From Agreia bicolorata (GTDB lineage: Bacteria; Actinomycetota; Actinomycetes; Actinomycetales; Microbacteriaceae): a DNA stretch of 64,000 nt. Shown piece after piece: positions 54,461-60,926 of this stretch. The stretch is taken from assembly GCF_000938265.1 (NCBI RefSeq), contig NZ_JYFC01000002.1, positions 1-64,000 on the forward strand, in the 5' to 3' direction. The notes beneath the pieces are model-generated. The model did no database searches and was not told where the DNA came from. It was given only the letters and a program-made list of their open reading frames with translations. Within the stretch, counting starts at the first letter, position 1. Each line of letters opens with the position of its first letter. The translations under genes and the position numbers were made by a program.

Positions 54461-55654
54461 CTAACGACCGCGCCGTGCGATCGCCGCGATGAAGCCGCCG
54501 ACGAAGGTGTCGCCCAGACCGATGGTGGTGGGTTGCGCGACCGTGAGCAGAAACGCGGGAACACAGCACACCTCGGCGCCCAGCCGGTCCCGGATGCCGT
54601 GGGCGAAGTCGGCGCCCAGCGGGTTGACCGGCAGCAGGCCCGTCTGCTCGTAGTTGCGCTCGGTGAAGCCGTCGCCGCGCACATAGCGCGTGCTGGCCAT
54701 CTGGATCGCACCGCGCAGCGCATCCTCGTAGTCGTCGGCGCGTGCACCCAACGCCAGCGACCAGAACTTGGTGTGCACCACGAGGAGGGCTGCGGGAATG
54801 AGCTCGCGGAGCTCGCCGAGCGCCACGGCCATCTCGTCGACATCGAGCAGATCGAGTGCGCGACCGACGTAGGCCTGCATCTCGTCTTCGTTCATGCTGT
54901 AGACGTCGATGCGCTCGAGCAGGGCCTCGCGCACGTGGCGGCTGAGGGTGGGCACGTGGAAGCCGGCGTCTTCGTAGAAGACCAGCGCGTCGTTCGGCAG
55001 GTGGCTCAGGTGTCGACGCATGTCGTCGAGCCGTCGCAGCAGCAGTTCCTCACTCTGGATGCTGTTGAACCCCGAGATCATAAAAAGCTCGGCCCGTTCG
55101 AGGCTGGCCCCGAGGTCGTCGCTGAGCACGAGCTCGGCATTCGGAGGATCGTTCGCGAAGATCACCCGATTGGCGTGCGGTGAGCGCAGTTCGAGTTCGC
55201 CCACGCGCACCCTGCTGCCCTCGACGAACTGAACGATGAGATGAGGGTCGAGCGTGTCGCGCTCGGCGCTCGAGATGTAGGCCGACTCGCGGGGGAGGAG
55301 CCTTCGCACATTGTCATCGATGCTCACGAGGTGCAGGGTGCACGAGACCCCCACGGCCTCCATGGCGTAGGCGGCCCGCACGCCCGTTCCGCCGAGGGTG
55401 ATGCGCCGCTCGAAGCGGGCGGCGAACTGCTCGACGGTGCGAGAGGAGGCGACGAATCGCTCTCCTCCCGCACCGTCTTTCACGAATGCGAGCAGCGCGA
55501 TGAGCAGATCGCGTTCGCTGCGGATCGCGATGAGGCGAGAGAGCTCCGACGCCTGGATGGCGTACTCGAGAACCAGATTGTCGATCACCCGGGAGTCCCA
55601 GACAATCTCGTAGTCCACGGTTCCGCCGAGGCCCAGTACGAGCTTCTCATTCAT
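54461..55654 (-). CDS. ADP-dependent glucokinase/phosphofructokinase family protein
   Basis: A 397-residue member of the ADP-dependent sugar kinase family (ribokinase-like fold). The catalytic Asp382 lies in the TIGLGDTFVGGF anion-hole motif near the C-terminus; RITLGGTGVRAAYAMEAVG forms the sugar-contact region. The mid-domain MISGFNSIQ is also typical of the family. The family uses ADP as phosphate donor in archaeal glycolysis and is sparse in bacteria. It is the last gene of an operon after a class II aldolase, so it may phosphorylate a sugar phosphate to the bisphosphate that the aldolase cleaves. Actual substrate unproven. Confidence 0.82.
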   Translation of the reverse strand: MNEKLVLGLGGTVDYEIVWDSRVIDNLVLEYAIQASELSRLIAIRSERDLLIALLAFVKDGAGGERFVASSRTVEQFAARFERRITLGGTGVRAAYAMEAVGVSCTLHLVSIDDNVRRLLPRESAYISSAERDTLDPHLIVQFVEGSRVRVGELELRSPHANRVIFANDPPNAELVLSDDLGASLERAELFMISGFNSIQSEELLLRRLDDMRRHLSHLPNDALVFYEDAGFHVPTLSRHVREALLERIDVYSMNEDEMQAYVGRALDLLDVDEMAVALGELRELIPAALLVVHTKFWSLALGARADDYEDALRGAIQMASTRYVRGDGFTERNYEQTGLLPVNPLGADFAHGIRDRLGAEVCCVPAFLLTVAQPTTIGLGDTFVGGFIAAIARRGR

Positions 55655-55694
55655 CGTGTTATCGCATTCCTTAGCTGGAGGGCGGGCAGTTCGA

Positions 55695-56555
55695 TCAGTA
55701 CAGTTTGGCCTTTCCGGCCGCGTTGAACAGATCGATCTTCTGAGCGGCTGTGACCTTCATGGCAGCGATCGACGGCGGCTGGATGGTGTTGGGCTCGCGA
55801 ACGCCCGCATCCGCCAGCACCTCCCGCATCTTGTTGTGGTAGCTCGCCTTGATGTCGGAAGAGATGTTGATCTTGTTCACGCCGAGCTTGACCGATTCGC
55901 CGATCTCATTGTCGGGGTTGTTCGATCCGCCGTGCAGCACGAGGGGGATGTTGACCTTCGCCTTGATGCGCTTGAGCAGCTCGAGCTTGAGCTCGGGCTT
56001 CATGCTCGCCGGGTAGATCCCGTGGCTGGTACCGATGGCGATGGCCAGGCTGTCGACGCCGGTGGACTCGACGAACGTCACCGCTTCGTCGGGCTCCGTG
56101 TAGATGATCGACGCGGCGCCGTCTTCAGCCTCGTTGTCGGTCTTGCCGATCGTGCCGAGCTCTCCCTCGACAGAGACGCCAACGGCGTGGGCGGTGTCGA
56201 CGACCTTCTTCGTGATGGCGATGTTCTCGTCGAACGGCAGCATCGAGCCGTCGATCATGACCGACGTGAAGCCGCTCTGAATCGCGAGCAGCACCTGCTC
56301 GTAGCTCGCGCCGTGGTCGAGGTGGATGGTCACCGGCACGCTAGAGCGGTTCGCCCGAGCGATGATCGCGGGCAGCACGTCGGTGCCGAGGTGGCTCAGC
56401 TCGTCGGGGTGGATGGCGATGAGCAGGGGCGACTGCTTCTCTTCGCTGATCTCGAAGAGGCCGTTCATCATGGCGTAGTCGCTGACGTTGAACGCCGGCA
56501 CAGCGAAGTTGTTCGCGTTGGCGACGTCGAGAAGGTCTTTTCCGGATACGAGCAT
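55695..56555 (-). CDS. Class II fructose/tagatose-bisphosphate aldolase family protein
   Basis: A 286-residue zinc aldolase of the GatY/KbaY/FbaA family. Zinc ligands are seen in THLDHGASYE, EGELGTIG (Glu), GTSHGIY and VLHGGSN. It cleaves a ketose 1,6-bisphosphate into dihydroxyacetone phosphate and glyceraldehyde 3-phosphate. ATG 56555 follows AAGGAG at 10 nt; the longer frame enters the permease gene. It sits between the sugar permeases and the ADP-dependent kinase, suggesting a sugar-specific aldolase (tagatose-type) rather than the housekeeping enzyme. Confidence 0.9.
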   Translation of the reverse strand: MLVSGKDLLDVANANNFAVPAFNVSDYAMMNGLFEISEEKQSPLLIAIHPDELSHLGTDVLPAIIARANRSSVPVTIHLDHGASYEQVLLAIQSGFTSVMIDGSMLPFDENIAITKKVVDTAHAVGVSVEGELGTIGKTDNEAEDGAASIIYTEPDEAVTFVESTGVDSLAIAIGTSHGIYPASMKPELKLELLKRIKAKVNIPLVLHGGSNNPDNEIGESVKLGVNKINISSDIKASYHNKMREVLADAGVREPNTIQPPSIAAMKVTAAQKIDLFNAAGKAKLY

Positions 56556-56620
56556 TGTGGGTTTTCTCCTTGTTTTGTGGTGAGGCAGTGTTGGCGAGGA
56601 AGTAGTGACGAGAAAGGGGG

Positions 56621-57547
56621 TCAGCTCTTGACGGCGCCGGCGGTCATACCGCCGATGAAATAGCGCTGGAAGAAGAGGAAGAGGATGAGCACGGGAATGC
56701 AGCCGAGGATGCTCATCGCCATCATTTCGTTCCACTGGTAGGAGTTCTGACCCATGAGCAGCTGGATGCCGATGGGCACCGTGCGCATGTCCTCCGTGCG
56801 GGTGAGCGTGAGGGCGAAGAGATACTCGTTCCACGCGATCATGAACGTGTAGACGCCCACCGAGACGATGCCGGGAATCGAGATCGGCACCAGGATGCGC
56901 CAGAGCACGGTGAGCGGGCCGGCCCCATCCATGCGGGCTGCTTCGTCGAGTTCCTTCGGCAGGGTGTTGAAGTAGCCGGTCATCATGATGATCGCGTAGG
57001 GAAGCGTGAACACCAGATAGGTGAGAATCAGGCCCTGATAGGTGTTGTAGAGGCCCAGCACCACCATGAGTCCGAAGAACGGAATCAGCAGCGTGATCGG
57101 CGGAACCGCCTGGATGCTCACGATGATCATGTTGATCGGGCGCTTGCCCTTGAACTCGTAGCGGCTGAACGCGTACGAGGCGAGGATCGCCACGATCAGC
57201 GTCAGAGCGGTGACCGCCAGTGAGACGACGTAGCTGTTGATGAAGAAGCGCACCTTCGTCGGGTCGGTGAGGATCGTGATGTAGGCGTCGAACGAGAAGG
57301 TCGAGGTGATCAGCTGCGGCGGGTACGCGAAGATCTCGGTGTTCGGCTTGAACGAGCTCGAGGCCATCCAGAGGATCGGGAAGGCGGCGAAGGCCGCACC
57401 CGTCAGCAGCAGCAGGATGATGACGACCTTCGCGAGTCGCTCCTTCGGCCGGCGCCGCGGCTTCTGCGCGAGCGGGCGTCGGGCGCCATCCGGTGAGTTG
57501 CGTACGGCCGAAGTCTGTTTCTGGGCGAATGTCGTCATGTCAGTCAC
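56621..57547 (-). CDS. Carbohydrate ABC transporter permease, MalG type
   Basis: A 308-residue CUT1 permease with six helices after a basic cytosolic N-terminus. The EAA loop is [24 protein letters not shown] (near 195-220). It pairs with the upstream MalF-type permease, whose stop it overlaps. The frame opens with a GTG at 57547; ATG 57538, which lies just after that stop codon, is an alternative start. Confidence 0.9.
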   Translation of the reverse strand: MTDMTTFAQKQTSAVRNSPDGARRPLAQKPRRRPKERLAKVVIILLLLTGAAFAAFPILWMASSSFKPNTEIFAYPPQLITSTFSFDAYITILTDPTKVRFFINSYVVSLAVTALTLIVAILASYAFSRYEFKGKRPINMIIVSIQAVPPITLLIPFFGLMVVLGLYNTYQGLILTYLVFTLPYAIIMMTGYFNTLPKELDEAARMDGAGPLTVLWRILVPISIPGIVSVGVYTFMIAWNEYLFALTLTRTEDMRTVPIGIQLLMGQNSYQWNEMMAMSILGCIPVLILFLFFQRYFIGGMTAGAVKS

Positions 57548-58475
57548 GCGCTTTCTGGTGACGCACGTAGAAGAACGCGAGCACCATGGTGAGAAGAAGG
57601 ATGAGCACGGCGCTCGCGGAGGCGACGGAGAACTCGTAGCGGCTGAAGGCGAGCTTGTAGGTGTAGGTGCTGAGCATCTCGGTGACGTTGACAGGGCCGC
57701 CGCCGGTGGTCATCCAGATGAGGGCGAACTGCTGCGAGGTCCAGATGATGTCGAGCACGCTCATGCTGATGATGATCGGCTTGAGCTGCGGCAGGGTCAC
57801 GTTCCAGAAACGCTGAAATGCGGATGCGCCGTCGACCCGGGCCGCCTCGTACAGGTCGGCGGGCACGCCCTGCAGACCGGCGAGGAGGGTGACCATGTAG
57901 AAGGAGTAGCCGGCCCAGATGTTGATGAACGTCACGGCGAGCAGCGCGGTCTCCGGAGACGACAGCCACTCGATGCCCTTGTCGGTCAGGCCGAGCGAGA
58001 TGAGAATGTAGTTGATGACGCCGTTCGGATTCAGCATCAGGCGCCAGAGCACCGCGATGATGGCGACCGTGAACAGCCACGGCAAGATGTAGACGACTCG
58101 GAAGAGCGCCTTGGTGACGTTGCCGACGAGCGGCGAGTTCAGCAGCATGGCGAAGCCGAGGCCCAGCAGCAGGTGCGCAGCGACGCTGACAAGCGTGAAG
58201 AAGAGGGTGTTGCCGGTCGCGGTGCGGAACACCGGGTCGTTCAGCACCTCGACGTAGTTGTCGATGCCGACGAACACCGGGTTCTTGTTCGTGATCACGT
58301 TGTCCATGAACGAATAGCCGATGACCATGATCACCGGAATGAGCATGAGCACGAGCATCACGATGACGGTCGGCGAGAGGAACGCGTAGGGGGTCAGCTT
58401 GCGTGCGGTGGGGGCCCACCTGGAGGTGCTGCGCTTCGTGCTGCCCGGTCTGACGACGGTGTTAGTCGCGGCCAC
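57540..58475 (-). CDS. Carbohydrate ABC transporter permease, MalF type
   Basis: A 311-residue permease from GTG 58475, chosen because AAAGG lies 8 nt upstream and the longer frame runs back into a stem-loop. Six helices start at about 28 (LTPYAFLSPTVIVMLVLMLIPVIMVIG). The EAA loop is YEAARVDGASAFQRFWNVTLPQLKP near 210-235. It is the first membrane subunit of a sugar importer whose binding protein is encoded upstream. No ATPase gene is in the operon. Confidence 0.9.
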   Translation of the reverse strand: MAATNTVVRPGSTKRSTSRWAPTARKLTPYAFLSPTVIVMLVLMLIPVIMVIGYSFMDNVITNKNPVFVGIDNYVEVLNDPVFRTATGNTLFFTLVSVAAHLLLGLGFAMLLNSPLVGNVTKALFRVVYILPWLFTVAIIAVLWRLMLNPNGVINYILISLGLTDKGIEWLSSPETALLAVTFINIWAGYSFYMVTLLAGLQGVPADLYEAARVDGASAFQRFWNVTLPQLKPIIISMSVLDIIWTSQQFALIWMTTGGGPVNVTEMLSTYTYKLAFSRYEFSVASASAVLILLLTMVLAFFYVRHQKARD

Positions 58476-58502
58476 TGCACTTGCCTTTCTGTTGGTGGGG
58501 GT

Positions 58503-58551
58503 GGCCGCGCCGCGGTAGTCCCTTTCTGTAAGGGCTGGCCGCGGCGCGGCC
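58503..58551 (-). other. Intercistronic stem-loop between binding protein and permease genes
   Basis: GGCCGCGCCGCGG (58503-58515) is perfectly complementary to 58539-58551. The loop contains a second stem CCCTT/AAGGG. It has the same placement as the stem-loop of the cebE-cebF spacer (9749-9820) and would give more binding protein than permease. Confidence 0.65.
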
Positions 58552-58583
58552 GTCAATCGACGGGTGTTTGTGAGGCGAAGAGG

Positions 58584-59876
58584 CTAGAACTCCCCGACCC
58601 ACGCATCCTGGGCCTTCTTGAGGCCGTCGTCGACCGATTCGTCTCCCTGCAGAATCGCCTGGAGCTGCTCATCGAAGAGGCGCATCAGCTGCTCTGCAAC
58701 CGGCAATCCGACGAACTCGTTGGCGGGCTTGCCCTTGGAGTAGATGTCGAAAGCCTGCTTGAACAGCGGGTCGCTCGACGAGAAGTCGGGCACGCTCTTC
58801 GTGTTGCCGGGGAACGCGTTGGCGAGGGTCGACAGCTTGGAGTTCGTCTTCTCGTTCATCAGGAACTGAACGAGCTTCCAGGACTCGGCGGGGTGCTTGC
58901 TGCTCGCCGACACTCCAATGCCCCACGAGGCGTAGGGGATGCCTCGTTCGCCCGTGAAACCGTCTTTTGCAGGAATCGCGGAGATGCTGAACTTGAGGTC
59001 GGGGTTCGACTTGCGGATCAGATCGATGTGCGACAGCGAGTCGATCATCATGCCGACGCGGCCGTTGGTGAACTCCTCGACCTTGTCCTGTTCCTTCATC
59101 GTGGCCGAACCGGGTGCGATCACGCCGGCGTCGTTCAGGCTCTTGATGTAGTCCACGGCGCTCGTGACATCTTTGTTGGTGACGTCAGGCTTGCCGTCTT
59201 TCAGCATGGTTCCGCCCGACGACCAGACCCACGACATCACGTCGTTCTGGATGCCGTTCGGGGCCTCGCTCGAAAGTGGCAGGACCCATCCGCTCGTGTT
59301 GTCGCCGAGCGCCGTCACGGCCTTCGCGGCGGTCTCGAACTCGGTTCGGGTCGACGGCGGGGCGGTGACTCCGGCCTTCGCCAGCAGGTCGTCGTTCGTG
59401 AAGAGCGGGTAGACGAAGTTGACCACGGGGATCATCTGCGTCTTGCCATCGACCTTGATCGTGCTGGCGAGTTCACTGTCGTCGTACTTGGCGTCCTTCA
59501 TCAGTGTGCTGAGGTCGGCGAGGGCGCCCTGCTTGGCGAAGTCGCTGACCCACGCGCCGTCGAGCCCGACGACGTCGGACATCGTGCCCGCCGCTGCGCC
59601 CGCGAAGAGCTGCTCTTTGGTGGAGGCGTAGGGACCGCTGAGCAGCTTGACCTTGATGCCGGGGTTCTCTGACTCGAAGGTGTCCATCAGGGCGCGCAGC
59701 GCGCCATCGGGCAGTTCCGGTTCCCACCACTGCGCGAGTTCGATGGTGACGTCGCCGCCACTCGAGGTGGACGTGTCAGTTCCGGCGCCTGACGAGCAGC
59801 CGGTGATGAGGGTGAGGGCCGCGGCGGCGGCCACGGCTGTGGTGATGCCTCTTCTAAAGCGAGCTTCTTTGCTCAT
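58584..59876 (-). CDS. Extracellular sugar-binding lipoprotein (SBP family 1)
   Basis: A 430-residue lipoprotein. A basic n-region, hydrophobic stretch and lipobox LITGC (Cys about 27) precede the MalE-like fold (TIELAQWWEPELPDGALRALMDTFESENPGIKVKLLSGPYAST). It is the first gene of a five-gene operon: binding protein, two permeases, aldolase, kinase. AGGAG sits 6 nt before ATG. The promoter is bracketed by two copies of the element that the divergent DeoR regulator probably binds. The sugar is unknown. Confidence 0.9.
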   Translation of the reverse strand: MSKEARFRRGITTAVAAAAALTLITGCSSGAGTDTSTSSGGDVTIELAQWWEPELPDGALRALMDTFESENPGIKVKLLSGPYASTKEQLFAGAAAGTMSDVVGLDGAWVSDFAKQGALADLSTLMKDAKYDDSELASTIKVDGKTQMIPVVNFVYPLFTNDDLLAKAGVTAPPSTRTEFETAAKAVTALGDNTSGWVLPLSSEAPNGIQNDVMSWVWSSGGTMLKDGKPDVTNKDVTSAVDYIKSLNDAGVIAPGSATMKEQDKVEEFTNGRVGMMIDSLSHIDLIRKSNPDLKFSISAIPAKDGFTGERGIPYASWGIGVSASSKHPAESWKLVQFLMNEKTNSKLSTLANAFPGNTKSVPDFSSSDPLFKQAFDIYSKGKPANEFVGLPVAEQLMRLFDEQLQAILQGDESVDDGLKKAQDAWVGEF

Positions 59877-59918
59877 GTCTCTCCTATGAGGTGCGGGATC
59901 GTGCTGTTGAATGCGCTT

Positions 59919-60080
59919 TTGTGCGCCTTATTGTTGTGACAGTAGTCCTATGCGAGGTTTAACGCAAGTAATCGCATCCGACTGCATTCTTGTGCGCCTT
60001 TCTCGCCTGTTATGGCAAAAGTGCCTTCGACGTCGGACAACCGGTTGCGTATTTCTGCAGTGTTCTGCTACAAATCAGAC
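59919..60080. promoter_or_regulatory. Divergent promoters and DeoR-type operators
   Basis: Minus strand: TTGCGT (59962-59967) and TACTGT (59939-59944), spacer 17 bp, for the sugar operon. Plus strand: TTGCGT (60045-60050) and TACAAA (60069-60074), spacer 18 bp, 6 nt before GTG 60081, for the regulator. TTGTGCGCCTT occurs at 59919-59929 and 59990-60000 as direct repeats flanking the minus promoter. They are candidates for DeoR binding. Confidence 0.7.
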
Positions 60081-60926
60081 GTGGCCGACTCATTTTCTCT
60101 CTCAGACGGCGACGATCAGCCCCTTCGGCTTCCTGCCGGGCGCAAGGCCGATCTCGCAGCTTACGTAAACGAGGTGGGCGAGGTCACGGTGTCGACGCTC
60201 GCCACCCGCTTCGGTGTTTCCGCCGATACGGTCCGGCGAGACCTCGATCGACTCGACGCCGACGGCTTTCTCGTGCGAACACACGGAGGCGCGGTGAGCA
60301 TCGCGGTGATGCCGTCGACCGAGAAGAAGCTCGACGTGCGCCTTCGCCTGCAGCGGTCGGCCAAGGAGAAGATCGGTGCCTTGGCGGCGGGTCTCGTTGA
60401 GAACGGGTCGGTCGTTATGATCAACGCAGGCACTACGACGCTCGCCGTGGTGAGGCATCTCGAAGATCATCGCGAGTTGACCATCGCCACGAATAACCTG
60501 CGCATCCCGACCGAGATCTCGCCCAAGGTCTGCCGAGACCTCTATGTCTTCGGCGGAGCAGTGAGACTGAGTGGGCAGGCAACGATCGGTCCGATCGGTT
60601 TTCAGTTCTCGGATTCGGGAAATGACCTCGATCTGCACTGCGACCTCGCCCTCATCTCGGTCGGCGCGGTCTCGGCCGAGAGCGGATTCTCGACCAGCAA
60701 CCTTGCAGAGGCGCTGATGATGAGCGAGATGATCTCGCGGGCCACGAAGGTCGCCATTCTGGCCGACTCCTCGAAGTTCGACCGTCGGCTCTTCGCGCAG
60801 GTGGCCGATCTGGCCAGCGTCGACTATTTCGTCACTGATGTGGCGCCGGCGGCAGAACTCGGCGACGCTCTCCGCGAGAACGGCGTCGAGGTTCTTCTGC
60901 CGCCGAGCGTCGATGCCGCAGACTGA
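60081..60926 (+). CDS. DeoR/GlpR family transcriptional regulator
   Basis: A 281-residue repressor from GTG 60081. The promoter TTGCGT/TACAAA lies directly before it and an ATG at 60012 would lie upstream of that promoter. The DeoR helix-turn-helix is at about 25-70 (VNEVGEVTVSTLATRFGVSADTVRRDLDRLDADGFLVRTHGGAV). The DeoRC sugar-phosphate-sensing domain follows (GTTTLAVVRHL, FGGAVR, ILADSSKFD). It is divergent from the sugar importer/aldolase/kinase operon, which it should repress until a sugar phosphate accumulates. Confidence 0.9.
   Translation: MADSFSLSDGDDQPLRLPAGRKADLAAYVNEVGEVTVSTLATRFGVSADTVRRDLDRLDADGFLVRTHGGAVSIAVMPSTEKKLDVRLRLQRSAKEKIGALAAGLVENGSVVMINAGTTTLAVVRHLEDHRELTIATNNLRIPTEISPKVCRDLYVFGGAVRLSGQATIGPIGFQFSDSGNDLDLHCDLALISVGAVSAESGFSTSNLAEALMMSEMISRATKVAILADSSKFDRRLFAQVADLASVDYFVTDVAPAAELGDALRENGVEVLLPPSVDAAD

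What the first reader, a model, noticed from the sequence alone, without database searches (positions are those of the whole stretch)
54461..60926. Sugar operon ending in an ADP-dependent kinase and class II aldolase
A CUT1 sugar importer is followed by a GatY/FbaA-type aldolase and a protein with the ADP-dependent glucokinase/phosphofructokinase motif GLGDTF. Such ADP-using kinases are best known from archaea. There is no ATP hexokinase or isomerase in the operon. The combination suggests a short route, sugar to sugar bisphosphate to trioses, with an unusual phosphate donor, under DeoR control.
Basis: partly seen in the sequence, partly recalled or inferred. Interest (0 to 1): 0.6.

Follow-up and report, generated by a model that had tools for sequence, protein, structure and literature searches.

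The report
Bacterial ADP-type sugar kinase operon
A bacterium carries a sugar-uptake operon ending in a kinase of the ADP-using family best known from archaea, paired with an aldolase, and the two together look built to split an unphosphorylated sugar by a short route without the usual sugar bisphosphate.

Summary
[quoted passage not shown] model pLDDT 93; the 22 best Foldseek matches are ADP-kinases, Z up to 37), with a divergent DeoR regulator. Aldolase and kinase are neighbours in 57 of 57 related loci, four of them Chloroflexota; the transporter genes join in 55. It is not housekeeping: the genome has its own PfkA and another class II aldolase. The kinase lacks the three-residue fructose-6-phosphate signature, and the aldolases lack the Arg of the DPR motif that binds fructose bisphosphate. 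A sister kinase (KIN2) comes with DPR aldolases (5 of 5; without KIN2, 0 of 82). Best reading: ketose to ketose-1-phosphate to DHAP plus a free aldehyde. Many relatives add a mannose-isomerase-like gene, and three operons end in DhaK-DhaL, which could finish glyceraldehyde. ADP use, the phosphorylated carbon and the sugar are inferred, not shown. A new variant of a known family, in a new setting.

The parts
54461..55654 (-). KIN: ADP-dependent sugar kinase family member, 397 aa
   Evidence: PF04587 E 6e-28; AlphaFold model pLDDT 93.4 and fold matches; catalytic residues invariant in 69 of 69 rows
55695..56555 (-). ALD: class II (zinc) aldolase, 286 aa, PRK08185-like, EPN instead of DPR
   Evidence: PF01116 E 9e-91; PRK08185 393.6 bits, cut-off 405; residues
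56621..57547 (-). PERM2: CUT1-type permease
   Evidence: PF00528 E 9e-22
57540..58556 (-). PERM1: CUT1-type permease
   Evidence: PF00528 E 2e-19
58584..59876 (-). SBP: sugar-binding lipoprotein-like protein of the importer
   Evidence: PF01547 E 9e-35; best PDB relatives GacH and other maltose-type binders
59909..60000 (.). two 21-nt direct repeats (59909-59929, 59980-60000), candidate DeoR operators
   Evidence: core TTGTGCGCCTT kept once in each of five Agreia loci and in the same intergenic stretch of L137
60012..60926 (+). DeoR-family regulator, divergent; the true start may lie further in, as the HTH begins at residue 44
   Evidence: PF00455 and PF08220

Best explanation
A self-contained route for an unphosphorylated ketose. 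The importer brings the sugar in (an aldose, perhaps, in strains that add the mannose-isomerase-like enzyme). KIN phosphorylates the free ketose at C1, most likely with ADP, giving ketose-1-phosphate and AMP. ALD splits the 1-phosphate into DHAP and an unphosphorylated aldehyde, glyceraldehyde if the sugar is a hexulose. The aldehyde is rescued by a DhaK/DhaL-type kinase, which is in the operon in three relatives and elsewhere in this genome. DeoR represses the operon until the sugar is present. It works like liver fructose breakdown or the E. coli YdjH/YdjI pair, with a kinase of the ADP family. Shown: gene content, conservation, family, fold, residue changes and their covariation. Inferred: donor, phosphorylated carbon, sugar, fate of the aldehyde, repression.
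For: Family and fold. Essential Arg (R206 in PMC7948494, here R163), N-x-x-E and the catalytic Asp invariant in 69 of 69 rows. F6P signature replaced: K179 to D136 (Asp in 61 of 69), N181 to H138 (69 of 69), R212 to D169 (66 of 69); E90, kept in glucokinases, is E65 (69 of 69). Aldolase DPR Arg lost in 67 of 67 rows, kept in E. coli GatY, KbaY and FbaA; segment deleted in YdjI, annotated as a 1-phosphate aldolase. Covariation: KIN2 loci carry a DPR aldolase in 5 of 5, loci with KIN alone in 0 of 82 scorable; it held in nine loci fetched afterwards. DhaK-DhaL follows in L126, L130 and L157. Housekeeping PfkA and a second class II aldolase exist.
Against: No substrate, donor or position is measured. 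Sugar-site positions are mapped by alignment at about 20% identity, not by superposed coordinates. Lys 236, at the place of the second FBP-binding Arg of Giardia (R259), is kept in 67 of 67 aldolases, as in GatY and KbaY, so a basic residue remains near the tail. The N34 position is Thr in 59 and Asn in 5 of 69, so that contact is not lost everywhere; Q244 was not mapped. DhaK-DhaL is linked in only three loci, from two genera of one family in the order. The isomerase-like gene fits a 6-phosphate substrate equally well.
Confidence: 0.5

Rival explanations
1. Hexokinase-like: KIN phosphorylates an imported aldose such as mannose at O6 with ADP; the isomerase-like enzyme of relatives makes the ketose-6-phosphate; housekeeping PfkA adds the second phosphate; ALD cleaves a bisphosphate.
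For: The sugar-site signature is glucokinase-like (E65, H138, D169); the neighbour gene in 39 of 57 loci resembles mannose-6-phosphate isomerase; PfkA is present.
Against: The aldolases lack the bisphosphate Arg in 67 of 67 rows and that residue changes with the kinase type. Asn32 and Gln116, shared by archaeal enzymes, are Gly and Thr here. The window genome has no relative of the isomerase-like protein (best E 0.26).
Confidence: 0.2
2. Same route, but the donor is ATP, PPi or another nucleotide rather than ADP.
For: The donor cannot be read from sequence with certainty. [quoted passage not shown] The His of the HXE motif is lost in 69 of 69 rows.
Against: Whole-length fold of the ADP type: Z 37.0 against at most 23.7 for ATP-type chains. 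The Arg that contacts the ADP beta-phosphate is invariant.
Confidence: 0.17
3. One reading: KIN is a phosphofructokinase-like enzyme making a ketose-1,6-bisphosphate, cleaved to two triose phosphates.
For: Closest folds include ADP-PFK (1u2x, E 1.6e-22); the aldolase belongs to the FBP/TBP family; Lys 236 kept.
Against: The residues tested in both enzymes speak against a 6-phosphate; no PTS or sugar-6-kinase is in the operon; the importer is an ABC type, which delivers free sugar (general knowledge).
Confidence: 0.08

Closest known systems
Archaeal and animal ADP-dependent sugar kinases (ADP-GK, ADP-PFK; PF04587)
   Same: Family, whole-length fold, GXGD, N-x-x-E, essential Arg
   Different: About 20% identity; sugar-site Asn and Gln replaced; His of HXE lost; in a dedicated bacterial operon with a matched aldolase
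E. coli YdjH/YdjI (octuluronate kinase and 1-phosphate aldolase)
   Same: Sugar kinase beside a class II aldolase that acts on a 1-phosphate (annotation; PMC11194214, passage)
   Different: From memory YdjH is of the PfkB type; the KIN family is PF04587; no uronate enzymes here
Sulfo-EMP and sulfo-EMP2 sulfoquinovose pathways
   Same: Ketose kinased at C1, then DHAP-forming aldolase; sulfo-EMP2 uses a PF01116 aldolase (PMC9594981, passages)
   Different: Kinases are PF00294 or PF00365; no sulfoquinovosidase or sulfolactaldehyde enzyme in this operon
Animal fructolysis (ketohexokinase, aldolase B, triokinase; recalled)
   Same: Logic: free ketose, 1-phosphate, DHAP plus glyceraldehyde, triokinase
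   Different: Class I aldolase and ATP kinase there; the substrate here is unknown

Membership tests
ADP-dependent sugar kinase family (PF04587) | Score over the curated cut-off | tested here: met
   98.1 bits, cut-off 27
ADP-dependent sugar kinase family (PF04587) | ADP-kinase fold over the whole length | tested here: met
   Foldseek ranks 1-22; Z 37.0, 391 aligned
ADP-dependent sugar kinase family (PF04587) | GXGD, N-x-x-E, essential Arg (R206), Glu of HXE | tested here: met
   D382, N255-E258, R163, E228 in 69 of 69 rows
ADP-dependent sugar kinase family (PF04587) | His of the HXE motif | tested here: not met
   Position 226 is Tyr, Phe, Val, Ile, Leu or Met; no His in 69 rows
ADP-dependent sugar kinase family (PF04587) | ADP as phosphate donor | not testable with these tools
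   Needs an assay
Specific ADP-phosphofructokinase | Lys, Asn, Arg at K179, N181, R212 | tested here: not met
   Asp, His, Asp in the window (family counts)
Specific ADP-glucokinase | Glu at E90, His at the N181 position, no Arg at R212 | tested here: met
   E65, H138, D169
Specific ADP-glucokinase | Family-wide sugar contacts N32 and Q116 | tested here: not met
   Gly 65 of 69 at N32; Thr 68 of 69 at Q116
Class II FBP/TBP aldolase | Zinc and catalytic residues | tested here: met
   D80, H81, E132, H178, H208, N230 in 67 of 67 rows
Class II FBP/TBP aldolase | Arg of DPR (Giardia R280) | tested here: not met
   Asn 61, Ser 3, Leu 2, Asp 1 of 67 rows
Sulfo-EMP2 sulfoglycolysis | PF00365 kinase SqiK | tested here: not met
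   Kinase is PF04587

The most novel reading that the evidence does not exclude
Bacteria hold a radiation of ADP-dependent ketose-1-kinases, each tied to its own class II aldolase and importer: the window's branch for neutral sugars, ended by a DhaK/DhaL-type triokinase, and a sister branch (KIN2, DPR aldolase, short-chain dehydrogenase, sulfatase) for sugars with an anionic C6 group such as hexose 6-sulfates. ADP, not ATP, would pay for sugar entry in mesophilic bacteria.
Probability: 0.33. Interest if true: 0.78.

Novelty: new variant of a known kind. Interest (0 to 1): 0.62.

Why it matters
ADP-dependent sugar kinases are known mainly from archaeal and animal hexose metabolism. Here a divergent branch sits in mesophilic actinobacteria and Chloroflexota, outside central glycolysis, in a dedicated operon with a matched aldolase. 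If confirmed, it would add a third substrate class to the family, open the question why a cell with ATP spends ADP on sugar entry, and give a testable two-enzyme specificity code (kinase type with aldolase EPN or DPR).

Tried and rejected
Substrate from the binding protein: PDB relatives are GacH and maltose-type binders and the sulfoquinovosyl-glycerol binder SmoF, not decisive. Sulfoquinovose: set aside for this operon; no sulfoquinovosidase or sulfolactaldehyde enzyme among its genes. Plasmid carriage: no match in 72,556 plasmid records. Neighbour genes outside the core: 20 proteins from 11 actinobacterial loci and 10 from four loci are mostly unrelated; DUF4432 was the exception. L089 (Chloroflexota; CUT2 importer, cupin isomerase, hexulose-phosphate synthase, ROK kinase) was taken up as a possible PFK-type control and did not serve as one: its kinase also has His and Asp, its aldolase EPF. 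Two loci with a close aldolase and no kinase (L131, L135) showed no replacement kinase among the seven neighbours scanned. Six kinase-less sister loci (L145-L150) have an FGGY kinase nearby and aldolases reading EPL or EPH, so EPx is not exclusive to the ADP-kinase. Whether the isomerase-like enzyme acts on free sugars was not tested; its phosphate-site residues were not mapped. In nine genomes searched with it, five had a match, one of them (L024's) strong but on another contig, four (Chloroflexota) weak. Promoter scan: none found, 0.8 expected. Structure searches list families among Foldseek's best 1000 chains only. Literature: searches gave no paper on these operons; only open-licence papers are held.

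Rows dropped: the aldolases of L025 and L054 (partial). The 69 kinase rows are 63 distinct sequences and the 67 aldolase rows 61, since six genomes appear under two names. Alignment A1 holds the window and 40 of 57 named loci; L061 was dropped for an internal stop, the rest left out to save length. In one search, 99 loci had a hit; the aldolase tail could not be scored in L054, L151 and L152, and L091 (KIN2-like) has no aldolase on its 3.5 kb contig.
Full report
What is there. The window is part of contig C12 of a 3.92 Mb genome; the nearest named kinases are from Agreia (90-94% identity). On the minus strand lie a binding protein (59876-58584), two permeases (58556-57540, 57547-56621, overlapping by 8 bp), a class II aldolase (56555-55695) and a kinase (55654-54461); a DeoR-type regulator is divergent at 60012-60926. 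The other gaps are 27, 65 and 40 bp. There is no transporter ATPase in the operon.

The kinase is a real member of the ADP-dependent family. PF04587 gives 98 bits (cut-off 27). NCBIfam's nearest models are ADP-dependent glucokinases, far below cut-off (57.5 of 387 bits), so it is a divergent branch. A profile of 41 sequences finds 14 PDB sequences at E up to 0.01, all ADP-kinases or their reconstructed ancestors. The AlphaFold model (pLDDT 93.4, pTM 0.91) has ADP-kinases as Foldseek ranks 1-22 (best E 1.6e-22; rank 23, a ribokinase, E 3.1e-10). By VIA-align Z is 37.0 to Thermococcus litoralis ADP-glucokinase (rmsd 2.8, 391 aligned), and at most 23.7 for other ribokinase-like chains.

It is not housekeeping. 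The genome has one other class II aldolase, one PfkA, two Dak1 genes and a single PF04587 gene. The family is patchy: 11 of 60 relatives, this genome included; 33 of 396 in an order-wide draw, included; 1 of 396 in a phylum-wide draw, this genome itself; 4 of 301 Chloroflexota. Of 14 control genomes two ring, both archaeal.

The unit is conserved. In 57 named loci found with the kinase (42-94% identity) an aldolase precedes the kinase in 57, SBP-PERM1-PERM2 are present in 55, DeoR in 51. L025 is cut by its contig end; L054 lacks the first half of the aldolase and everything upstream (break or deletion, not followed up); DeoR is missing in the four Chloroflexota loci. A mannose-6-phosphate-isomerase-like gene lies in the fetched stretch in 39 of 57, mostly right after the kinase, in three loci behind DeoR. 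Its PDB relatives are 1qwr and 1zx5; it is far below the manA cut-off. DUF4432, recalled to be mutarotase-like, is in 5 of 57 and in L130, L157 and L163. The window has neither, and this genome has no relative of the isomerase-like protein (best E 0.26).

Residues against a 6-phosphate in the kinase. PMC7948494 (passages) says that K179, N181 and R212 are conserved only in ADP-PFK and bifunctional enzymes, E90 only in glucokinases and bifunctional ones, that T. litoralis glucokinase has His for N181, and that R206 is essential. By alignment these are D136, H138, D169, E65 and R163; the spacings from R206 agree (25 to N181, 6 to R212). Over 69 rows (63 distinct) E65, H138, R163, N255-E258 and D382 are invariant, D169 is Asp in 66, D136 Asp in 61. 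N32 is Gly in 65, Q116 Thr in 68, N34 Thr in 59 and Asn in 5. So it is not a phosphofructokinase by these marks, and not a standard glucokinase.

The aldolase agrees. PMC6692403 (passages) names R259 and R280 of Giardia FBPA as FBP-binding. At R280, E. coli GatY, KbaY and FbaA have Arg (DPR); 67 rows here (61 distinct) have Asn 61, Ser 3, Leu 2, Asp 1. An HPDE loop stands at FbaA's SNGG, whose Ser is recalled as a C6-phosphate ligand. Zinc and catalytic residues are intact. At R259 a Lys is kept in all 67, as in GatY and KbaY, so the tail site is not stripped of charge. YdjI, annotated as a 1-phosphate aldolase, lacks the DPR segment.

A test by covariation. An aldolase search of 198 order-level genomes (49 with a match) brought in sister cassettes. 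L143 and L144 have the same importer type and an aldolase at 54%, with a second ADP-kinase subfamily (KIN2; PF04587 E 3e-13 in L143) and a short-chain dehydrogenase; L136 has both kinases and both aldolases in one run. The KIN2-linked aldolases read DPR. I then fetched nine more kinase loci: the two with KIN2 each have one DPR and one EPN aldolase, the seven without have EPN, EPL or EPD. In all: KIN2 with an aldolase present, DPR in 5 of 5; KIN or a KIN-like kinase without KIN2, DPR in 0 of 82 (some genomes appear twice, relatedness is not corrected for, and the kinase-less loci also read EPx). A sulfatase lies beside DeoR in 4 of the 5 KIN2 loci; among the other stretches searched the only match was a 21% one in L065. 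This fits an anionic sugar for the sister branch and a neutral one here. KIN2's own sugar site aligns too loosely to be read.

The far end. In L126 DhaK and DhaL follow the kinase; in L130 and L157 the order is SBP-PERM1-PERM2-ALD-KIN-DUF4432-isomerase-DhaK-DhaL (domains confirmed). A kinase for dihydroxyacetone or glyceraldehyde is what a 1-phosphate split would need. This genome has a DhaK 72% identical to that of L126 on contig C19.

Mechanism. Shown: order, conservation, family, fold, residue losses, covariation. Inferred: ADP as donor, phosphorylation at C1, products DHAP and a free aldehyde, the sugar, repression by DeoR. A ketohexose is the simplest candidate; pentuloses and heptuloses are not excluded. 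The main rival is an O6-phosphorylating enzyme feeding PfkA; the missing DPR Arg speaks against it.

Known and new. PMC7948494 states that bacterial members have been reported (abstract). In the passages of a 2025 review (PMC12965863) ADP use by bacterial PFK is listed for PFK-A enzymes, and ADP-PFK of the PFK-B type under Archaea; its glucokinase table was seen only in part. Searches found no paper on these operons. I file it as a new variant: a known enzyme family in a new pathway setting with changed sugar-site residues.

Regulation. Two 21-nt direct repeats lie between DeoR and the binding protein. Their 11-nt core occurs once in each of five Agreia loci and once in L137, there too between SBP and DeoR. 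It also occurs once in an E. coli stretch, as chance would allow.

Noticed in passing
L136, L143, L144, L155, L156: Sister cassette: same importer type, DPR aldolase, second ADP-kinase subfamily (KIN2), short-chain dehydrogenase, and a sulfatase beside DeoR in 4 of 5; may serve sulfated sugars.
   Followed up: partly
L145-L150: Another sister cassette: importer and EPL/EPH aldolase with an FGGY kinase and a second, more distant class II aldolase nearby, no ADP-kinase.
   Followed up: partly
L089:880-12048: Chloroflexota operon: RpiR regulator, CUT2 importer, cupin glucose-6-phosphate isomerase, hexulose-6-phosphate synthase, SIS protein, ROK kinase, divergent ADP-kinase (26%) and EPF aldolase (56%).
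   Followed up: partly
L061:7107-8282: The matched kinase stretch of a Propionibacteriaceae MAG holds an internal stop codon; decay or assembly error.
   Followed up: no
L054:8554-10179: Kinase with only the second half of the aldolase and no importer upstream in a Microbacterium contig whose name mentions Halomonas; break or deletion.
   Followed up: no
L131:5955-7543, L135:3616-4656: Aldolases 66-70% identical to the window's without kinase or importer nearby; in L131 a HAD-type hydrolase gene overlaps the aldolase start.
   Followed up: no
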